From contig NZ_BLPF01000001.1 of the NCBI RefSeq assembly GCF_011764425.1, forward strand, positions 2,719,001-2,783,000: a DNA stretch of 64,000 nucleotides, read 5' to 3'. The notes below the pieces were generated by a model. It was not told the DNA's origin and ran no database searches. It saw only the letters and a list, made by a program, of their open reading frames with translations. Both the position numbers and the translations under genes were made by a program. The DNA is from Phytohabitans houttuyneae. Lineage in GTDB: Bacteria > Actinomycetota > Actinomycetes > Mycobacteriales > Micromonosporaceae. Shown piece by piece: positions 8,426 to 32,661 of this stretch (position 1 is the first letter of the stretch; every line of letters starts with the position of its first letter).

Positions 8426-10330
8426 ATGCGTGTGACTTACGGGGTGGCGGCGATTGTGCTGGCCGCGGGCGTTTTAACCGCCTGCGGAAGCGATGATGGG
8501 CCGGAAAAGAGCGTCGACGCGTTCCTGTCCGGGTGGCGCTCGGGCAATCTCGACGCGGTGGGCTTCATCAACCCGGGCGGGCAGAAGATCCCGGCCGCCG
8601 ACGTGGTGACCGAGATCAAGGCGCTCTCGGGCGCGCTCGCGACCACCCCGCCGGCACTCACCCGCACGGGTGAGCCGTCGGTCACCGAAGACATCGCCAC
8701 CAGCACGGTCAACGTCGACTGGACGCTGCCGGGCGGCGCGCACTGGACGTACCCGACCACCGTCCGCCTCAACAAGAGCAGCGACGACAAGTGGCAGGTG
8801 ATCTGGGAGCCCAAGGTCGTCCAGGAGAAACTCACACAGGGTGACGAGTTCGCGATCGAACGGGAAACCTCCGATCGGGCGCCCATCCTCGACGCCGCGG
8901 GCAAGGCGATCGTGGAGTCCCGCCCGGTGGTCGTGGTCGGCATCGAGCCAGGCCGGGTGGTGGGCATGGAGCAGCTGGTCAAGGACCTGGACAAGATCCT
9001 CAAGTCGGCACAGGTCGACGTCGACCTGGCCGACCTCCCGGCGCGCGCGGCCGCCGCTGACCCGACCCACTTCGTCGACGTGGTCACGCTCCGCAAGGAG
9101 GTGTACCTGAAGGTCCGGGACCGGCTCCAGGCACTGCCCGGCACGCGGTACCGCGACGAGAACCGCTATCTGGCGCCCACCCGCGAGTTTGCCCGCGCGC
9201 TGCTCGGCACCGTCGACCCGGTACAGAAAGAGGACATCGACAACAATCCGGGCAAGTACGTCGTGGGTGATGTGGTTGGGCACGGTGGGCTGCAGGAGCG
9301 GTACGACGACCAGCTACGCGGCGGCAGCGGACAGATCGTCAAGATCGTGCGAAAGAGCGGCGAAGGCACCGAAAAGACCACCGAGGAGGTGGCGGAGGTG
9401 TTCCGGGCCGAGCCCAAGCCGGGTGCCCCGCTGAAGACCACCCTTGACCCGAAGATCCAGCGTGCCGCAGACAACGCGCTTCGCGGCACCGGCAAGCCCG
9501 CCGCCCTTGTCGCGGTGCGGGTGCACGACGGCACGGTGGCCGCGGTCGCCAACACGGGGGACGTCAACCTCGCGTTCGACGCGTCGGTACCGCCGGGGTC
9601 GACGTTCAAGATGGTCTCCGCGCTGGCCCTGCTCGACAAGGGCGCGGTGACGCTCGACACCAAGGTCAACTGCCCCAAGAACGCCACGGTGGACGGCCGC
9701 TCGTACAAGAACTCGCACGACATGGCCCTCGGCAACGTCCCGTTCCGCGTGGACTTCGCCCGCTCGTGCAACACCGCCTTCATCGGCCTCGCCCCCAAAC
9801 TCGGCGACGACGGCCTGGCCACCGCCGGCCGCGCGCTGGGCCTGGAGGGCAAGTGGAGCCTGGGCATCGACGCGTTCAGCGGCAAGGTCTCGACCGGCGG
9901 CTCGGCGACGGAGCGCGCGTCGGCCTCGTTCGGCCAGGGCACGACGGTGGTCAGCCCGCTGGCGATGGCGGCGGCGACGGCCGGGGTGGCGCGCGGACAG
10001 TGGCAGCAGCCGACGATCCTGACCGAGCCCGCGCCGGCGGAGAAGGCCGCGCCCGGCCCCGAGCTCAACGCCGGATCGGTCGAGGCCGTCCGCACGATGA
10101 TGCGCGAGGTGGTCACGGAGGGCACGGGGTCCGCGCTGAAGGACGTTCCGGGCGAGCCGGTGTACGGCAAGACCGGCACCGCCGAGTTCGACAACAATCC
10201 GGCCAACACCCACGCCTGGTGGGTGGGGTGGCAGGGCGACATCGCGTTCGCCGTTTTCGTCGAGAAGGGCGGCGACAGCGGCAAGAGCTCGGTGCCGGTA
10301 GCGGAGAGGTTCTTGCGCGGCCTCGCCTGA
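8426..10330 (+). CDS. Lipoprotein class B penicillin-binding protein (D,D-transpeptidase)
   Basis: A 634-residue peptidoglycan cross-linking enzyme anchored outside the membrane. Residues 1-20 form a lipoprotein signal with lipobox LTAC (Cys20). Residues about 28-140 look like the NTF2-like domain seen at the N terminus of MecA/PBP2a-type proteins, followed by a dimerisation region. The transpeptidase domain carries the three catalytic motifs: S392-T-F-K395, S447-C-N449 and K582-T-G. The ATG at 8426 is chosen because it begins the signal peptide; the ribosome site is weak. The upstream gene is divergent (139-bp gap) and a strong terminator follows 14 bp after the stop. Family membership is firm; which cell-wall step it serves is not known. 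Confidence 0.9.
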   Translation: MRVTYGVAAIVLAAGVLTACGSDDGPEKSVDAFLSGWRSGNLDAVGFINPGGQKIPAADVVTEIKALSGALATTPPALTRTGEPSVTEDIATSTVNVDWTLPGGAHWTYPTTVRLNKSSDDKWQVIWEPKVVQEKLTQGDEFAIERETSDRAPILDAAGKAIVESRPVVVVGIEPGRVVGMEQLVKDLDKILKSAQVDVDLADLPARAAAADPTHFVDVVTLRKEVYLKVRDRLQALPGTRYRDENRYLAPTREFARALLGTVDPVQKEDIDNNPGKYVVGDVVGHGGLQERYDDQLRGGSGQIVKIVRKSGEGTEKTTEEVAEVFRAEPKPGAPLKTTLDPKIQRAADNALRGTGKPAALVAVRVHDGTVAAVANTGDVNLAFDASVPPGSTFKMVSALALLDKGAVTLDTKVNCPKNATVDGRSYKNSHDMALGNVPFRVDFARSCNTAFIGLAPKLGDDGLATAGRALGLEGKWSLGIDAFSGKVSTGGSATERASASFGQGTTVVSPLAMAAATAGVARGQWQQPTILTEPAPAEKAAPGPELNAGSVEAVRTMMREVVTEGTGSALKDVPGEPVYGKTGTAEFDNNPANTHAWWVGWQGDIAFAVFVEKGGDSGKSSVPVAERFLRGLA

Positions 10331-10380: not shown

Positions 10381-10485
10381 GGGGGTTTGCGTTTTGGGGG
10401 CCGGCTTTAACGGCAACCGCGAGGCGATCCGCGCTGGCGTCGCCTCGCGCCCTGCCTCGCCCTGGCGGTGCCTCGTCCCGTGCTC

Positions 10486-10621
10486 TGCCTCGCGCCGCGC
10501 CCTGCCTCGCGCCGCGCCCTGCCTCGCGCCGCGCCCTGCCTCGCGCCGCGCCCTGCCTCGCGCCGCGCCCTGCCTCGCGGCGCGCCCTGCCTCGCGGCGC
10601 GCCCTGCCTCGCGGCGCGCCC
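10486..10621. repeat. Minisatellite: eight 17-bp tandem units
   Basis: Five units of TGCCTCGCGCCGCGCCC followed by three of TGCCTCGCGGCGCGCCC, head to tail, with a decayed ninth unit to 10638 and looser relatives on both sides. Seventeen is not a multiple of three and all frames change between units, so it is not coding. It fills the gap between the terminator and the arginase-family stop codon at 10693. The units are self-complementary in part (GGCGCGCC) and may fold. Confidence 0.9.
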
Positions 10622-10692
10622 TGCCTCGGCCCGCGTTCTGCCTCGTGCCTCGACCCAGGCCCTGCCTCGGCCCGGGCCGCGCCGATCAAGGT

Positions 10693-13600
10693 CTAGGCGT
10701 TTTCGCCCGGCAGGCCCTTCTTGGGGCGGCGCAGGCGACCGGGCCCCGCCTTGGCTGGCGGGCCAAACGGCTCGAACGCCGGCACGGACGTCCCCCCACC
10801 CGGCCGTGGACGCGGTTCCGGCACCTCGCCGTTGTCCCTCGCCCCCAAGTCCGCCGGCTCCGCCTGCGCGTCCTCGTCCGCGGGCGGCTGGGCCTCATCG
10901 TCCTTCCACGACGACTCGGCCTGTCCACCCCGGCGCAGCCTGCCCGGCCCGAGATCGTCGGCGCTCCGCCGCAGCCCGCCCGGCCGCTGGTCGTCGTCGC
11001 TCCGCCGCAGCTTGCCTGGCCCGTGGTCCTCGTCGCCGCTCCGTCGGAGCCTGCCTGGCCCTGCGTCGTCGTCGCTGCCGCGTCGCAGCCCGCCCGGCCC
11101 CAGATCGTCGTCGCTCCGCCGCAGCCCGCCCGGCCCTGGATCGTCGTGGCCGCTCCGTCGCAGCCCGCCCGGCCCTGGGTCGTCGTCGCCGCTCCGTCGC
11201 AGCCTGCCCGGCCCTGGGTCGTCGTCGCCGCTCCGTCGCAGCCTGCCCGGCCCTGGGTCGTCGTCGCTGCCGCGTCGCAGCCCGCCTGGCCGCTGGTCGT
11301 CGCCGCCCCTGCGGAGCTTGCCCGGCCCCAGGTCGTCATCGCCGCCCCGACGCAGCCCACCCGACCCTGGGTCACCGTCGCCGCCCCGCCGCAGCCTGCC
11401 CAGCCCCATATCGTCGTCGGCCCGGCGCAGCTTCGCCGGCAGGCGGTCCTCGTCGCTCTGGCGGGGGTTTGGCAGTCCCGGAACGTCATCGCCGCGGCCC
11501 AGCTTCGCCGGCCCCGGCTCGCCGTCGTCGCTACGCGGTGCGGCCGGCTCCGAGTCACCGTCCCTCCGCAGCCCGAACGGTCCCACCTCGCCCGCCCGCC
11601 GCGCGGCCCGCTCAGCGGGCGTGCCCCTCCGCGCGGCGAGGTCGGCCGAGACGCCCATCCACGCCGACTCGGCCTTGCGGCGCAACGTCGAGTCCGACCC
11701 GGGACGGCCACGGGGACGCGACTCCGGATCGGCCTGGTCCGGCTGGCCCGACTCCGCCTCATCCCTCGCCCGACGTGCCGGGTCAAGGCCGCCCTTCTGC
11801 GACGCCCCCGAATCCGACGCGGCCTTGAACCGCCCGGCCGAGTCCCGCTCCGGCATCGTGCGCCCTGCAGCTTTGTCGTCCGCCTTGGCGGGGTCGGGCT
11901 TTTCGTCGTCGCCGGGCTGCGGCGGCTCCGCACCCATCTGCGAGGCGGCGGTCTCACGCTGCGCACCGGTGGGCTCCGACTCCGCGTCCAACGGCGGGTC
12001 GGCGGGCTCACGCCGCGAACCGATGGGCTCCGACTCCGCGTCCAACGGCGGGTCGGCGGGCTCACGCCGCGAACCGATGGGCTCCGGCCCCGCAGCCGAC
12101 TGCGAAACAGTGGGCTTGTCGTCCGGGGCCTTGCGGGCGGCGGGAGGCTTGCGGATGCCGGCAGCCGCGGCGGCAGCGGCCAACAGTTCGGCGGCGGCGC
12201 TGTCGCCGAGCAGCGGTGGGACGGATGGCGCGGTGCCCGCGCTGGATGTCGCGGAGGCCGATGCCGCGTGGGCGGCAGAGGTTATCGAGGCCGTGTCGGA
12301 CTCGTAATGCGATGGCTTGCGCGCCGACGGCGTGACCGGGACGGGCCTGACCTCGGCGGGCGCCGACACGGCCGTGGACGGCTCGGTGTCGTCAGCGTCG
12401 GCAGCCTCCACATCGGACGGTGCGGTGACGGGAGCGCCATCCTGGGTGGCACCCTCCGCGCCGCCGGCCTCGGGGGAAAGCCCACCGACCTCCGGCGAAG
12501 GCCCACCGGCCTCGGGCGAAGACGAAGACCCACCCGTCTCGGACGAAGGTCGACCACCGTCCGGCGACGGTCGGCCGGCTTCCGGCGAGGATGGATCGGC
12601 GTCGTGGGAGACGTGGGCGGGCTCCAGCGGAGAGTCGTCGGTGTCCGGCTCGTCGGTCTCGGCCGCGGCGCCGTCAGCATCGGGCGAGGAGGTGCCGTCC
12701 TCGGGCCAGGGACCGTCGGGCGACGGCTCGCCAGCGTCGGGCGAAGGCGTGACGGCGTCGGGCCAGGGGCCGCCGGCCTCGGGGGATACGCCCGCCGAAA
12801 GGTCATCGTCCTCGAGCGAATCCCGGTCAGATTCCAGCCAGGGACCACGGGGCTCGGGCGGGCGAGAGCCGGAGTCGAGCCACGGGCCAGTCGTTTCGGG
12901 CGTGAGCCATCCGGCCTCCGCCGTTGGCCGGCCAGCCTCGGACGGCGAGCCACCAGCCGAGGGCGACAAGCTGCCAGCCTCCCGCGACAGGTCGCCAGCG
13001 TCAGGCGAGAGGTCGCCAGCGTCGGGCGGCGCGCCTGCGGACCCGGGCGGAAGCCCAGCCGCCGCCGACCCGGAAGAGCCGCCGGACGGCGCCCCGACCT
13101 CACCGGCATCCGCCACCGGCGAGAGCACGACGGGAGCGGCAGTGGGCGACGGAGGCGGGAGCGGGAGCGGGTCGGCCATGCGGACGGGTGACAGGCCGGC
13201 CACCACGGTGTCGACGATCTCGGCCGCGTACGAGCCGTCCGGGTCATAATCCGGGTCGAAGACAGTGAGCTCCACCCCCAGGCAGTGCGGGGTGTCCACC
13301 AGGCCGCTCAGCAGCAGCTCCAGCTCGGCGAACGCGATGCCGCCCGGGTCTGGGGCGTCCACCGCGGGCATCACCGCGGGGTCCAGCACATCCACGTCTA
13401 TGTGCACCCAGTAGCCTGCGCAGTCGCTCAGCTGGTCGCGGGCCCACTGGGCGGTGCGGGCCGCGCCCTCCACGCGGAGGGCGGGCACCGGGCGGGTGAT
13501 GATGCCCGCCGCCTGGAGGTCGAGCCGGTACTCATCCTGGGCGCGGATGCCCAGCACGACCACGTCGACGTCCCGGAAGTACGGGCGGCGCCCCTCGATG

Positions 13601-14094
13601 CCGGCCAGGTCGGCCTGGCCGCGGCCAGTGGCGAGCGCGAGGTCCTCGCCGGCCGCGGCGCCTACGTAAGAGGCGTTGCCGGGGTGGCGGAAGTCGGAGT
13701 GGCCGTCGACGAACACCAGCCCGATGCGGCCACCCACCACCTCGCCGAGCCGGTGCATCGCCAGGGCGGAGCCGAGCAGGATGGAGCAGTCGCCGCCCAG
13801 CACGACGGGAAACTCGCCACCGTCGATGATCGAGCCGATGCGGTCGGCCAAAGCCACCGAGTACGCCGCGATCTGCTCGGCGTGGCACACCCCGTCGCCC
13901 GGACGCCAGTCGCCCGGGTCGTACCGCGGTGGGGTCAGGCAGCCCGCGTCGCGGGCGGCGAGGCGGGCCACCAGGTCGTGGTCGCGCAGTGCGCCGGGCG
14001 CCTTCGCACAGCCTGGCACCGACGTCTCGGTCGGCGGGCGCAGTCCGAGGTTGGAGGGTGCGTCGAGGATGGCGATGCGGCGCATGGGCGGCAC
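10693..14094 (-). CDS. Arginase/agmatinase-family protein fused to a long repetitive disordered tail
   Basis: 1,133 residues. Residues about 5-305 are a ureohydrolase (arginase) domain with the metal-site motifs GGDC (100-103), DGHSD (130-134) and HIDVDVLDP (231-239). The first-motif His of arginases (GGDH) is Cys here and the family's DAHxD reads DGHSD, so the substrate (arginine, agmatine or other guanidino compound) is open. Residues ~310-1133 are low-complexity: SPxAG-type repeats, then an exact 18-residue duplication near 672-707, then about 14 tandem 12-13-residue units of the form LRR-[GS]-[GS]-DDD-x-GPG (about 880-1058). Start GTG 14094 overlaps the upstream thioredoxin stop by one base; ATG 14085 is an alternative. 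The tail stays open in frame through highly repetitive DNA, which argues that it is really translated. Confidence 0.75.
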   Translation of the reverse strand: MPPMRRIAILDAPSNLGLRPPTETSVPGCAKAPGALRDHDLVARLAARDAGCLTPPRYDPGDWRPGDGVCHAEQIAAYSVALADRIGSIIDGGEFPVVLGGDCSILLGSALAMHRLGEVVGGRIGLVFVDGHSDFRHPGNASYVGAAAGEDLALATGRGQADLAGIEGRRPYFRDVDVVVLGIRAQDEYRLDLQAAGIITRPVPALRVEGAARTAQWARDQLSDCAGYWVHIDVDVLDPAVMPAVDAPDPGGIAFAELELLLSGLVDTPHCLGVELTVFDPDYDPDGSYAAEIVDTVVAGLSPVRMADPLPLPPPSPTAAPVVLSPVADAGEVGAPSGGSSGSAAAGLPPGSAGAPPDAGDLSPDAGDLSREAGSLSPSAGGSPSEAGRPTAEAGWLTPETTGPWLDSGSRPPEPRGPWLESDRDSLEDDDLSAGVSPEAGGPWPDAVTPSPDAGEPSPDGPWPEDGTSSPDADGAAAETDEPDTDDSPLEPAHVSHDADPSSPEAGRPSPDGGRPSSETGGSSSSPEAGGPSPEVGGLSPEAGGAEGATQDGAPVTAPSDVEAADADDTEPSTAVSAPAEVRPVPVTPSARKPSHYESDTASITSAAHAASASATSSAGTAPSVPPLLGDSAAAELLAAAAAAAGIRKPPAARKAPDDKPTVSQSAAGPEPIGSRREPADPPLDAESEPIGSRREPADPPLDAESEPTGAQRETAASQMGAEPPQPGDDEKPDPAKADDKAAGRTMPERDSAGRFKAASDSGASQKGGLDPARRARDEAESGQPDQADPESRPRGRPGSDSTLRRKAESAWMGVSADLAARRGTPAERAARRAGEVGPFGLRRDGDSEPAAPRSDDGEPGPAKLGRGDDVPGLPNPRQSDEDRLPAKLRRADDDMGLGRLRRGGDGDPGSGGLRRGGDDDLGPGKLRRGGDDQRPGGLRRGSDDDPGPGRLRRSGDDDPGPGRLRRSGDDDPGPGGLRRSGHDDPGPGGLRRSDDDLGPGGLRRGSDDDAGPGRLRRSGDEDHGPGKLRRSDDDQRPGGLRRSADDLGPGRLRRGGQAESSWKDDEAQPPADEDAQAEPADLGARDNGEVPEPRPRPGGGTSVPAFEPFGPPAKAGPGRLRRPKKGLPGENA
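10925..11455 (-). repeat. Tandem 36/39-bp repeats encoding LRR-(G/S)DDD-GPG units
   Basis: Roughly 14 tandem DNA units of 36 or 39 bp inside the arginase-family tail. Read on the minus strand they give alternating basic (LRR), acidic (DDD) and turn (GPG) blocks. Unit length changes are always whole codons, so the frame has been kept under selection or by recent expansion. Confidence 0.8.
11971..12078 (-). repeat. Exact 54-bp tandem duplication encoding an 18-residue unit
   Basis: The 54 bases at 11971-12024 repeat without change at 12025-12078, and a third, diverged start follows. It encodes SEPIGSRREPADPPLDAE twice. Perfect identity points to a recent duplication in the arginase-family tail. 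Confidence 0.85.
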
Positions 14095-15008
14095 TAGAAG
14101 AGGGCGCTCGCGAGGGCCCGCCGCGCGCTGGAGACCGCCGGGTCGTCAGGTCCGGCGATCGCGAACAGCGACAGCAGATGCTTGCGGATCTCCTCGCGCT
14201 CGTCGCCCGACGTGCGGCGGACCAGGGCGACCAGCCGCTTGTACGCCTCGTCGGCGAGGCCGCTGAGCACCTCGACGTCGGCCGCGAGCAGCTGGACGGG
14301 CACGTCGTCGGGCTTGGCCTCGGCGTCGGCGAGCGCGGCACGCGGGTCGACGCCCACCACCCGGCGGGCGAGGGCGACGTGCGCCAGCCCGGCCTCGGCC
14401 GCGGCGTCGGCCGGCGACTCGGCGAGGATCTTCTTGTACGCCTGCTCGGCCGTGTCGAGGTCGCCGGTCATCAGCGCGTCGTCGGCGTCGATCAGCCGCG
14501 GGTCCTCGGGCGCGGTCGGCGGCTGCACGCCGCCCGCCTTGAGCACCGCGTCGATCCACTGGCGCAGCTGCGTCTCCGGCACGACGCCGGTGAACGCGTC
14601 GACCGGCTGGCCGCCCACCACCGCGTAGACCATCGGGATGCCCTGGACGCGGAACATCTGCGCGAGCCTCGGGTTGCTGTCGACGTCGACCTTGGCGAGC
14701 ACCCACGTGCCGCCACCCTCGACGGCGAGCTTTTCGAGGATCGGCGAGAGCTGCTTGCAGGGCTGGCACCACTCGGCCCAGAAATCGATGACTACCGGTA
14801 CGGTGAGCGACCGCTCCAGCACCTCTGTCTGGAACGTGGCCTCGGTGACGTCGATCACAGTGGCAGCGCCACCGCCGGGCGGTCCGCCAGGCGCGCCTTG
14901 TCGGGCCGGCGCCTCGGTGCGGCTCGGGGTGGGTGCGGGACTGCGCAGCGCGCTGAGGTCGACCGCGCCGCGGGTGAAGATCGACGGAGTGGTCCGTGGG
15001 TCGCTCAT
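14094..15008 (-). CDS. Thioredoxin-domain protein with TPR-like C terminus (YbbN/CnoX-like)
   Basis: A 304-residue cytoplasmic protein. After a disordered Pro/Gly-rich leader (1-50), residues ~52-160 are a thioredoxin fold with the redox motif W-C81-Q-P-C84 and the cis-Pro loop [10 protein letters not shown]. The rest is helical with repeated Ala-rich TPR-like hairpins ([20 protein letters not shown]). This architecture matches YbbN/CnoX, a redox chaperone; here both active-site cysteines are present, so thiol-disulfide exchange is plausible. The stop overlaps the GTG start of the arginase-family gene by one base, so the two are probably cotranscribed. Confidence 0.85.
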
Positions 15009-31083: not shown

Positions 31084-31176
31084 GGTGTGCTCACCATCTG
31101 TAGACGTGGCGCGTATCCCTCCGCCGAATGGTGGGTATCCAGGCGCCGTTCAGGCGAGCGTGTGAGGATGGACAGC

Positions 31177-32661
31177 ATGTCGCACGGCGGAGAGCTCTTT
31201 GGTCTAAGTGATGGCACCTCGACAGAGCCGACCTTCGAGTCGGCCATGCGGGGTTACGACAAACGCCAGGTAGACCGGTATGTCGCCCGCGCCGAGGGCG
31301 AAATAGCCTCCCTCGCCGCCGAGCGGGAGCAGCTGTACGCGCAGATCCAGAGCCTCGCCGCGCAGGTCGAGCAGTTGCAGGCCGAAGTGGTCAACGTCCG
31401 GCGCCAGTCGGCGAGTGTGGACAAAGTCTCGTACCGCCACCTCGGTCCGCGCGTGGAGCAGATCCTGGCGCTCGCCGAGGAGCAGGCCGACGCGATCCGC
31501 GGCAGCGCCACCCACGAGCTCGCCGAGCAGCGGGCCGAGGCGGAGCGGGCGCTGGCCGAGGCGAGGGCGCGCGCGGCCGACGCGGTGCGTGACTTCGAGA
31601 TCGCATTGGCAGCCCGCCGTTCCGATGAGGAAAAGGCGTCCGCCGAGCGCCGCGCCGCGGCCGAGTCGACGGTGGCCCAGGCCCAGGAGCAGGCCGACGC
31701 GATCCTGGCGGCCTCGCGCCAGCAGGCCGAGGCGATGCGCGCCGAGGCGGAGGCCGCGCTGGCGCAGGCCCGGCAGCGTGCGCAGCAGCTGAGCGAAGAG
31801 GCGACGCACTTCGCGGAGCAGTCCCGGGCGGAGACCGAGGCGTTCGTCCAGGCCGCCCGCAGCCAGGCCCAGCAGGAGCTGGCGCAGTGGCGCGGCAGCG
31901 TGGAGCAGGAGATCAACCAGCGCCAGGCCGAGTTCGACCGTGACTTCACCCAGCGGCGGACGGCCGCCGAGCAGGAGTTCGCACAGCGGCGGGCGGCGGC
32001 CGAGCAGGAGTTCGCGCAGTGGCGGGCGAGCGCCGAGCAGCAGGTGGCGGCGCGCAACGCCGATGCCGAGCGGTACGTGGCGGAGGTCCGGCGCCAGGTC
32101 GAGGAGCAGGCCGCCTCGGTGCGCCGGGAGGCCGAGGAGCACGCCGCGGCGATCCGGCGGCAGACCGAGGAGCAGGCCGCGACCGCGCAGGGGCACCTCG
32201 CCGCCACGCAGAAGCACCTCGCCTCGACGCAGAAGGAGACGGCCGCCGCCGGCCAGCTCCTCGCCGATGTCCAGCAGCAGGTGGCACAGGCGCAGGAGGC
32301 CTTGGCCGAGATCAAGCACCAGACCGTGGCCACCCGCCAGGAGGGCGACAAGTTCCGGCGCGCGCTCAACGAGGTGCAGGAGCAGCTCGCCACCGAGCGG
32401 CAGCGGCTCACCGAGGCGCAGCGCACGGCGGAGCAGGCCGAGCGCAAGGTGGTGGAGGCCAAGGCGACCGCCAAGAAGGCCAGCGACGCCGCCGCCGAGA
32501 TGGCCGAGCCGCGCGAGCTGGAGTCCGCGTCGGAGAAGACCCAGGTGGTGGACACGGCGGCCGTCACTCAGGTGGTGAGCGTCGACGAGCCGGCCGCCGA
32601 GGACGACGAGGAAGAGTCCGGCGCGAAGGAGCGGGCGGAGACGCCGCAGAAGGTCGGTTAG
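31177..32661 (+). CDS. DivIVA-motif coiled-coil protein, FilP-like paralogue
   Basis: About 494 residues. The N terminus repeats the DivIVA motif (SAMRGYDKRQVDRYVARAE, about 22-40), then a short coil, then HLGPRVEQILALAEEQADAIR, the same block as in the gene before. After that comes continuous coiled coil with Gln-rich units such as AAEQEFAQRR repeated in tandem. The tail is acidic (DDEEESGAKE). It is a cytoskeletal filament protein of the Scy/FilP family, probably acting at cell poles. ATG 31177 has GAGG nine bases upstream; ATG 31168 is three codons earlier. The duplicated block shows that the two neighbours are paralogues. Confidence 0.75.
   Translation: MSHGGELFGLSDGTSTEPTFESAMRGYDKRQVDRYVARAEGEIASLAAEREQLYAQIQSLAAQVEQLQAEVVNVRRQSASVDKVSYRHLGPRVEQILALAEEQADAIRGSATHELAEQRAEAERALAEARARAADAVRDFEIALAARRSDEEKASAERRAAAESTVAQAQEQADAILAASRQQAEAMRAEAEAALAQARQRAQQLSEEATHFAEQSRAETEAFVQAARSQAQQELAQWRGSVEQEINQRQAEFDRDFTQRRTAAEQEFAQRRAAAEQEFAQWRASAEQQVAARNADAERYVAEVRRQVEEQAASVRREAEEHAAAIRRQTEEQAATAQGHLAATQKHLASTQKETAAAGQLLADVQQQVAQAQEALAEIKHQTVATRQEGDKFRRALNEVQEQLATERQRLTEAQRTAEQAERKVVEAKATAKKASDAAAEMAEPRELESASEKTQVVDTAAVTQVVSVDEPAAEDDEEESGAKERAETPQKVG

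What the first reader, a model, noticed from the sequence alone, without database searches (positions are those of the whole stretch)
10693..14094. Arginase-fold enzyme with an ~820-residue basic/acidic repeat tail
A ureohydrolase domain joined to a longer low-complexity region with SPxAG repeats, an exact 18-residue duplication and ~14 LRR-DDD-GPG units is not an arrangement I know. The alternating LRR and DDD blocks could self-associate, bind nucleic acid or membranes, or be phosphorylated at RRS sites.
Basis: partly seen in the sequence, partly recalled or inferred. Interest (0 to 1): 0.75.

Follow-up and report, generated by a model that had tools for sequence, protein, structure and literature searches.

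The report
Arginase-like enzyme with motif-repeat tail
A soil actinobacterium makes an arginase-like enzyme with an unusual active site, and its long floppy tail repeats about fourteen times a short motif that related species usually carry once, which suggests a docking handle whose partner is unknown.

Summary
In detail: one minus-strand frame, 10693-14094, encodes an arginase-fold domain (residues 1-305) joined to an 828-residue low-complexity tail. A long open frame proves little at 75% G+C, but the tail is translated: in relatives its conserved blocks differ mainly at third codon positions. The core is nearly universal in the family (148 of 150 genomes) and follows a thioredoxin-TPR gene in 75 of 75 loci. 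Its active site is altered but conserved: GGDCS for GGDHS, and Val/Ile where arginases have the guanidine-binding Glu. The tail ranges from 0 to about 1050 residues and is hypervariable. Even so, 72 of 92 complete tails of 40 or more residues carry PGxLR[RP], against 0.6 expected by shuffling, in about 46 of 73 rows after E-P-x-G-P. This window is an extreme case: the motif was amplified to about 14 units with acidic spacers. Fewer-copy arrays occur in other genera. Best reading: a disordered spacer presenting a docking motif, made multivalent here. Partner, substrate and multivalency are inferred, not shown. New variant of a known kind.

The parts
13180..14094 (-). Ureohydrolase/arginase-fold core, residues 1-305 (GTG start overlaps the stop of the upstream gene; ATG at 14085 likelier)
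   Evidence: Pfam PF00491 E 6.6e-27; phmmer to solved arginases; Foldseek best hits arginases, E 3.2e-14; 86-96% identity in five same-genus genomes
13783..13797 (-). GGDCS (residues 100-104): Cys103 in place of the first metal-ligand His
   Evidence: (Cys in 123 of 123 rows)
13693..13707 (-). DGHSD (residues 130-134), metal-ligand motif, kept
13378..13404 (-). HIDVDVLDP (residues 231-239), metal-ligand motif, kept
13252..13278 (-). GVELTVFDP (residues 273-281): Val278 aligns with the guanidinium-binding Glu of arginases
12379..13179 (-). Acidic, Ser/Pro/Gly/Ala-rich hypervariable stretch with SPxAG repeats (residues 306-572)
   Evidence: poorly conserved against the nearest relative (77 of 240 aligned residues identical over 306-560)
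12118..12219 (-). Genus-conserved block PPLLGDSAAAELLAAAAAAAGIRKPPAARKAPDD (residues 626-659)
   Evidence: found in 4 of 5 Phytohabitans tails given; 73 of 104 pairwise differences at third positions
11971..12084 (-). Tandem duplication, 18-residue unit (residues 671-708)
11596..11694 (-). Genus-conserved block DSTLRRKAESAWMGVSADLAARRGTPAERAARR (residues 801-833)
   Evidence: core of the block found in 4 of 5 Phytohabitans tails given; 38 of 50 differences at third positions
10927..11442 (-). Array of 14 LRR positions with D-rich spacers, 12-13 residue period (residues 885-1056)
   Evidence: L111, L117 and L118 have one or two such positions at the matching place
10696..10785 (-). C-terminal block VPAFEPFGPPAKAGPGRLRRPKKGLPGENA (residues 1104-1133), the genus form of the family motif
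   Evidence: in 5 of 5 Phytohabitans tails given, window included, 75 of 79 differences at third positions; PGxLR[RP] in 72 of 92 tails
14094..15008 (-). Upstream co-directional thioredoxin + TPR protein (CnoX/YbbN-like; label recalled)
   Evidence: Pfam Thioredoxin and TPR_20; upstream on the same strand in 75 of 75 loci of 9 kb or more
8426..10330 (+). Convergent penicillin-binding protein (MecA_N, PBP_dimer, transpeptidase)
   Evidence: convergent downstream in 72 of 75 loci
10446..10683 (.). Minisatellite of 17-bp then 24-bp units between the two convergent genes

Best explanation
The gene encodes an arginase-fold protein of a Cys-ligand (GGDCS) subfamily with a conserved metal site, made with a thioredoxin-TPR protein. 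Its C-terminal tail is intrinsically disordered and works as a flexible, length-tolerant spacer. The spacer presents a short docking motif, in its commonest form EPxGPPAxAGPGxLRR, near the C-end to a partner (another protein or the enzyme's own neighbouring subunits). In this strain the GPGxLRR half was duplicated in tandem with Asp-rich spacers to about 14 copies, turning a single docking site into a multivalent one. Shown: the fusion, translation of the tail, motif conservation, amplification, altered active site, gene neighbourhood. Inferred: disorder in solution, docking, multivalency, catalytic activity. Unknown: partner and substrate.
For: PGxLR[RP] in 72 of 92 complete tails of 40+ residues (106 copies), against a mean of 0.6 tails in 1000 shuffles, maximum 4. 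Conserved context: E in 46, P in 48 and P in 61 of 73 rows at -10, -9 and -6. The last copy lies 7-85 residues from the C-end although tails vary from 0 to 1053 residues. Selection on the blocks: C-terminal block 75 of 79 differences at third positions, 78 synonymous and 0 nonsynonymous codon differences over 10 pairs (the search pattern fixed those residues). In 42 relatives chosen by the motif pattern, the 7 codons GPGxLRR differ 3703 times at position 3 against 226 and 216 at positions 1 and 2. Three or more strict copies in 6 of 92 tails (window, L063, L010, L113, L112, L009; L063 and L010 have 95% identical cores), the stretches between copies being richer in D/E than the whole tail in all 6 (no shuffle control, and in L112 one gap is 683 residues). 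No helix or strand in residues 303-1133 of the AlphaFold2 model. Low hydropathy over most of the tail and no Cys.
Against: 15 of 92 tails lack the motif in any frame of the stretch read, 5 more have it only in another frame, and 11 of 103 complete tails are under 40 residues, so the core does not need it everywhere. Outside the blocks the tail shows little constraint: over residues 306-560 against L111, 163 nonsynonymous and 45 synonymous codon differences in an uncertain alignment. No partner was identified. The full-length model is poor throughout (mean pLDDT 41.7, core included), so it is weak evidence of disorder. The sample is dominated by Micromonospora and not evenly drawn. The enzyme's activity is unknown.
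Confidence: 0.5

Rival explanations
1. The tail is mostly neutral low-complexity expansion: replication slippage in 75% G+C DNA keeps adding in-frame repeats to a gene end that tolerates them. Only the last ~30 residues matter, and the 14-copy array has no function of its own.
For: Tail length 0 to 1053 with no consistent composition; the first tail stretch aligns poorly with the nearest relative (77 of 240 identical); a minisatellite adjoins the gene; other relatives carry unrelated repeats at the same place; third-position bias within the array is weak.
Against: The repeats that grew here and in some other genera contain the conserved motif, with acidic stretches between copies. Genus-conserved inner blocks lie well before the C-end. 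All 13 array intervals keep the frame.
Confidence: 0.3
2. The tail folds back: the Arg-containing motif docks on, or is processed by, the arginase-fold core itself (autoinhibition, oligomerisation through the C-terminal tail, or conversion of its own arginines to ornithine).
For: Leu-Arg of the motif unvaried in the 26-row alignment of an arginase-fold protein; the Cys-ligand arginase zmARG dimerises through its C-terminal tail (PMC6988801, abstract and passages seen); the C-terminal block was not detected away from this locus at E < 0.015 in 41 genomes.
Against: The guanidinium-binding Glu is Val/Ile in 123 of 123 rows and the position of the SGNxHG His is Ala in 119 and Gly in 4; tail-less or nearly tail-less orthologues exist; a 36-residue query is weak for excluding other motif-bearing proteins.
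Confidence: 0.12
3. The alternating Arg and Asp blocks bind nucleic acid or membranes or form condensates, with RRS as kinase sites.
For: Charge autocorrelation of the array peaks at lags 12-13 (0.25, 0.32); 7 RRS sites.
Against: Net charge of residues 888-1053 is near zero (36 positive, 35 negative) and of the whole tail negative; no aromatic residue in the array. The conserved element in relatives is one short motif, not alternating charge.
Confidence: 0.07
4. The tail is not a protein: the true coding strand there is the opposite one, or the frame is an accident of high G+C.
For: The opposite strand is open for 907 codons, and third-position G+C falls in the tail.
Against: Third-position bias of differences in the minus-strand frame in all three conserved blocks, and the same C-terminal residues near a stop in relatives.
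Confidence: 0.01

Closest known systems
Zymomonas mobilis arginase zmARG (PDB 6KSY; PMC6988801, abstract and passages seen)
   Same: Arginase fold; Cys replaces the first metal-ligand His (reported motifs GGDCL, DSHPD, HIDLDVLDP); phmmer match over residues 96-251, E 6.3e-05.
   Different: 290 residues, no long tail; its C-terminal helix mediates a dimer; reported to be a Mn-dependent arginase (Km 6.8 mM, kcat 302 per s), which is untested here. Whether it keeps the guanidine-binding Glu was not seen.
Classical bacterial arginases (Bacillus, Thermus; PDB 6nfp, 1cev, 2ef4)
   Same: Fold and three metal motifs in order; among the best Foldseek hits.
   Different: GGDHS, the SGNxHG His and the VEVNP Glu are replaced by Cys, Ala and Val; scores below the NCBIfam arginase cut-off (76.9 against 227.6 bits); tail.
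Peptide arginases of RiPP pathways (OspR type; recalled, not looked up)
   Same: Arginase-fold enzymes acting on arginine within a peptide: a precedent for the boldest reading only.
   Different: No homology tested; separate substrate peptides.
Disordered cargo-loading or scaffold tails with repeated short motifs (encapsulin cargo domains, EPYC1; recalled)
   Same: A disordered segment carrying one or several short conserved docking motifs attached to or organising an enzyme.
   Different: No shell or scaffold partner was sought or found; no sequence relation tested.

Membership tests
Ureohydrolase/arginase fold superfamily (PF00491) | Profile match over the whole domain | tested here: met
   95.1 bits, cut-off 22, residues 7-294
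Ureohydrolase/arginase fold superfamily (PF00491) | Predicted fold matches solved arginases | tested here: met
   Foldseek E 3.2e-14, TM 0.66, rmsd 5.5 to 6nfp; model mean pLDDT only 60.5, loops poor
Arginase (TIGR01229 equivalog) | Score above the curated cut-off | tested here: not met
   76.9 against 227.6 bits; formimidoylglutamase and agmatinase models also below cut-off
Arginase (TIGR01229 equivalog) | GGDHS first metal-ligand His | tested here: not met
   GGDCS; Cys in 123 of 123 rows
Arginase (TIGR01229 equivalog) | Glu that binds the guanidinium (rat E277; number recalled) | tested here: not met
   Val 116, Ile 7 of 123 rows at position 278
Arginase (TIGR01229 equivalog) | Hydrolysis of L-arginine | not testable with these tools
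   No assay
Cys-ligand (GGDCS) arginases such as zmARG | Cys in place of the first His with DxHxD and DxDxxDP kept | tested here: met
   Asp130, Asp134, Asp233 and Asp235 in 123 of 123 rows, His132 in 120 of 123
Cys-ligand (GGDCS) arginases such as zmARG | Mn-dependent arginase activity | not testable with these tools
   Reported for zmARG only (PMC6988801)
Intrinsically disordered motif-presenting tails | Lack of predicted structure with a conserved short motif | tested here: inconclusive
   No secondary structure in residues 303-1133 but a poor model; motif conservation clear

The most novel reading that the evidence does not exclude
The tail is a sticker-and-spacer scaffold made for the enzyme it is attached to: repeated GPGxLRR stickers crosslink the oligomeric enzyme into a network or condensate. 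In the boldest form the stickers' own arginines are the substrate of the altered active site, so that the protein processes or senses arginine within itself.
Probability: 0.08. Interest if true: 0.85.

Novelty: new variant of a known kind. Interest (0 to 1): 0.5.

Why it matters
A near-universal enzyme of Micromonosporaceae (a family known, from general knowledge, for antibiotic producers) matches only the general arginase family. It has a conserved but altered active site and a disordered tail whose length is almost free while one short motif is mostly kept and in some lineages multiplied. That is a natural experiment on how docking motifs gain copies in bacteria. It gives a specific handle, a motif of about 16 residues, with which to find the partner and so the role of an unassigned enzyme.

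Tried and rejected
Tail as antisense or frame accident: rejected by third-position bias. A separate downstream protein: rejected, because in L115 the C-terminal block lies within about 45 residues of the core (in another frame) and in L111 core and blocks share one frame. P. flavus and P. suffuscus as proof of a different, basic tail: rejected. Translated in three frames they hold the same blocks in shifted frames. In L117 (the P. suffuscus locus) the ABC permease and the PBP, and in L115 the ABC permease, also change frame, and completeness of the three genomes is 89-96%, so assembly errors are likely but not proved. For P. flavus (L118) the neighbour stretches seen were each in one frame, so a true frameshift is not excluded. 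Programmed frameshifting was considered and not pursued for the same reason.

Other carriers of the C-terminal block: no match below E 0.015 away from the arginase locus in 41 genomes with a 36-residue query. The last 457 residues as a homology query in the own genome found only this locus. A core structure from 30 sequences gave only modest confidence, so no active-site geometry is claimed. Stop-to-stop frame lengths as a measure of the tail: rejected, because they include open codons before the start and past shifts (L007 688 open against 369 from the core start; L119 432 against about 301). Literature: ten searches (terms combined arginase with Micromonospora, disordered, actinobacteria, metal ligand, DcsB, encapsulin, N-hydroxy-L-arginine, short linear motif, GGDCS, Phytohabitans). 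Eight listed nothing, one search listed three papers whose listings looked unrelated, and one search listed the zmARG paper. DcsB, another Cys-ligand case, is recalled only and found in no held paper.
Full report
WHAT IS THERE. The minus-strand frame 10693-14094 runs 1133 codons from a GTG that overlaps the stop of the upstream gene; an ATG at residue 4 is the likelier start. Pfam finds one domain, Arginase, residues 7-294. NCBIfam matches arginase, formimidoylglutamase and agmatinase models only well below their cut-offs. Residues 306-1133 are low complexity: an acidic Ser/Pro/Gly/Ala part with seven strict SPxAG copies, an exact 20-residue repeat at 671 and 689, and 14 LRR positions between 889 and 1053 at a 12-13 residue period.

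IS IT CODING. Long open frames are cheap at this base composition: the opposite strand is open for 907 codons, and in P. flavus the frame runs on over the neighbouring gene. The real test is divergence. Five Phytohabitans tails, window included, were given to (the sixth genome of the genus, L116, with a 9-residue tail, was not). All five hold the block VPAFEPFGPPAKAGPGRLR; over ten pairs 75 of 79 base differences fall at third positions, with 78 synonymous and no nonsynonymous codon differences. The search pattern fixed those residues, so the zero is built in, but the synonymous divergence is not. Two inner blocks, found in four of the five, show 73 of 104 and 38 of 50 differences at third positions. 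Within the window's array the 13 intervals differ in length only by whole codons; differences by codon position are 64, 32 and 91 in the eight 13-residue units and 26, 21 and 24 in the five 12-residue units, so the array itself shows only weak bias.

RELATIVES. The core is in 148 of 150 genomes of the window's family at E <= 1e-80 but in only 6 of 296 genomes drawn across the phylum at E <= 1e-40, two of which are of this family, the window's own included. The family name Micromonosporaceae is recalled from the named relatives. The nearest of those are Phytohabitans suffuscus and P. flavus (96%). In loci of at least 9 kb the thioredoxin-TPR gene lies upstream on the same strand in 75 of 75 and the penicillin-binding protein convergent downstream in 72 of 75. 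These 75 rows include the P. suffuscus and P. flavus loci twice each (73 and 70 of 73 without the second copies).

TAIL VARIATION. Among 108 tails read, 5 run off the stretch held, leaving 103 complete, median 154 residues, range 0-1053; 92 have 40 or more. Before this count L001 (the window's own copy) was dropped and eight short-flanked copies were removed, six of them replaced by longer stretches of the same genomes and two being the P. suffuscus and P. flavus loci already present. The set is mostly Micromonospora and Actinoplanes. In the 30 best loci, which are spread over genera, 20 have 40 or more residues beyond the core and 10 fewer. Stop-to-stop frames around the core in 147 of the 148 genomes range from 303 to 1535 codons, 17 of 320 or fewer. 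These are upper bounds, since they include open codons before the start, and four rows have a stop inside.

THE MOTIF. Of the 92 complete tails of at least 40 residues, 72 hold PGxLR[RP]; shuffling each tail gives a mean of 0.6 and at most 4 in 1000 trials. Around the last copy the commonest residues are E-P-V-G-P-P-A-S-A-G-P-G-L-L-R-R; Phytohabitans has FEPFGPPAKAGPGRLRR and Actinoplanes EPLPATRPGMLRPRP. Of the 20 tails without it, five have it in another frame (L031, L032, L115, L083, L085) and 15 lack it in what was read. The C-terminal residue is Ala in 77 of 92, unexplained.

AMPLIFICATION. In L111, L117 and L118 the matching place has one or two LRR positions (IRR or LRP, then GPAKLRRGG), against 14 in the window. 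Three or more strict copies occur in six of 92 tails: window 12, L063 7, L010 5, L113 4, L112 3, L009 3. L063 and L010 are close relatives (95% core identity), so this is about five lineages; independence was not tested on a tree. In all six the stretches between copies are richer in Asp/Glu than the whole tail; no shuffle control was made, and L112 is not a compact array (one gap of 683 residues).

ACTIVE SITE. Against Thermus and Bacillus arginases the core keeps DxHxD and DxDxxDP but has GGDCS for GGDHS, Ala at the SGNxHG histidine and Val for the Glu of the VEVNP motif (residue roles recalled). In 123 aligned rows (not deduplicated, the window's own copy included) Cys103, Asp130, Asp134, Asp233, Asp235 and Thr277 are invariant, position 278 is Val (116) or Ile (7), position 148 is Ala (119) or Gly (4), and His132 is kept in 120; the three with Ser are L119-L121, tail-less relatives from another family of the class. 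A Cys ligand need not kill activity: zmARG of Zymomonas mobilis has one and is reported as a Mn-dependent arginase (PMC6988801, abstract and passages). The lost Glu argues that the substrate here is not arginine, by inference. The core model has mean pLDDT 60.5 and resembles arginases.

HOW IT PROBABLY WORKS. Strong selection on the core (12 nonsynonymous and 55 synonymous codon differences against L111), near-freedom of tail length and sequence, and selection on one short motif near the end is the pattern expected of a flexible tether presenting a docking peptide. Tandem growth of the motif with acidic spacers would raise avidity. That step, the partner and the reaction are inference. The thioredoxin-TPR neighbour is the first candidate partner, on gene order alone. 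The chief rival is neutral repeat growth around a functional C-terminal block.

NOVELTY. The ten literature searches listed under Tried and rejected found no paper describing such a tail on an arginase-fold protein; subscription literature is mostly not held. I rate it a new variant of a known kind.

Noticed in passing
window 10446-10683: Minisatellite of 17-bp units (about 10 copies) then 24-bp units between the two convergent genes, ending a few bases from the tail's stop codon; 17 is not a multiple of three.
   Followed up: no
L031/L117 (P. suffuscus), L032/L118 (P. flavus), L115, L083, L085: Tail blocks or motif lie in shifted frames relative to the core. In L117 and L115 neighbouring genes also change frame, suggesting assembly errors; for L118 no neighbour shift was seen; L083 and L085 neighbours were not checked for this.
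   Followed up: partly
L119-L121: Tail-less relatives from another family have Ser in place of the metal-ligand His (DGSADF, DASADF, DASPDF): possibly pseudoenzymes of the same subfamily.
   Followed up: partly
window 31087-32661 (+): Repeat-rich protein, coiled coil by appearance, with a sub-threshold DivIVA match (19.6 bits, cut-off 28) and 33-bp period repeats.
   Followed up: partly
C-ends of 92 complete tails: The last residue is Ala in 77 of 92 tails, and the one before it Ile or Thr in 50 of 92, though Ile is only 1.1% of tail residues; even the 9-residue tail of L116 ends AEIA. Possibly a C-terminal signal.
   Followed up: no
G004, eight places on C1: Eight weak matches of identical score to the 36-residue query at scattered sites look like a multicopy mobile element.
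   Followed up: no
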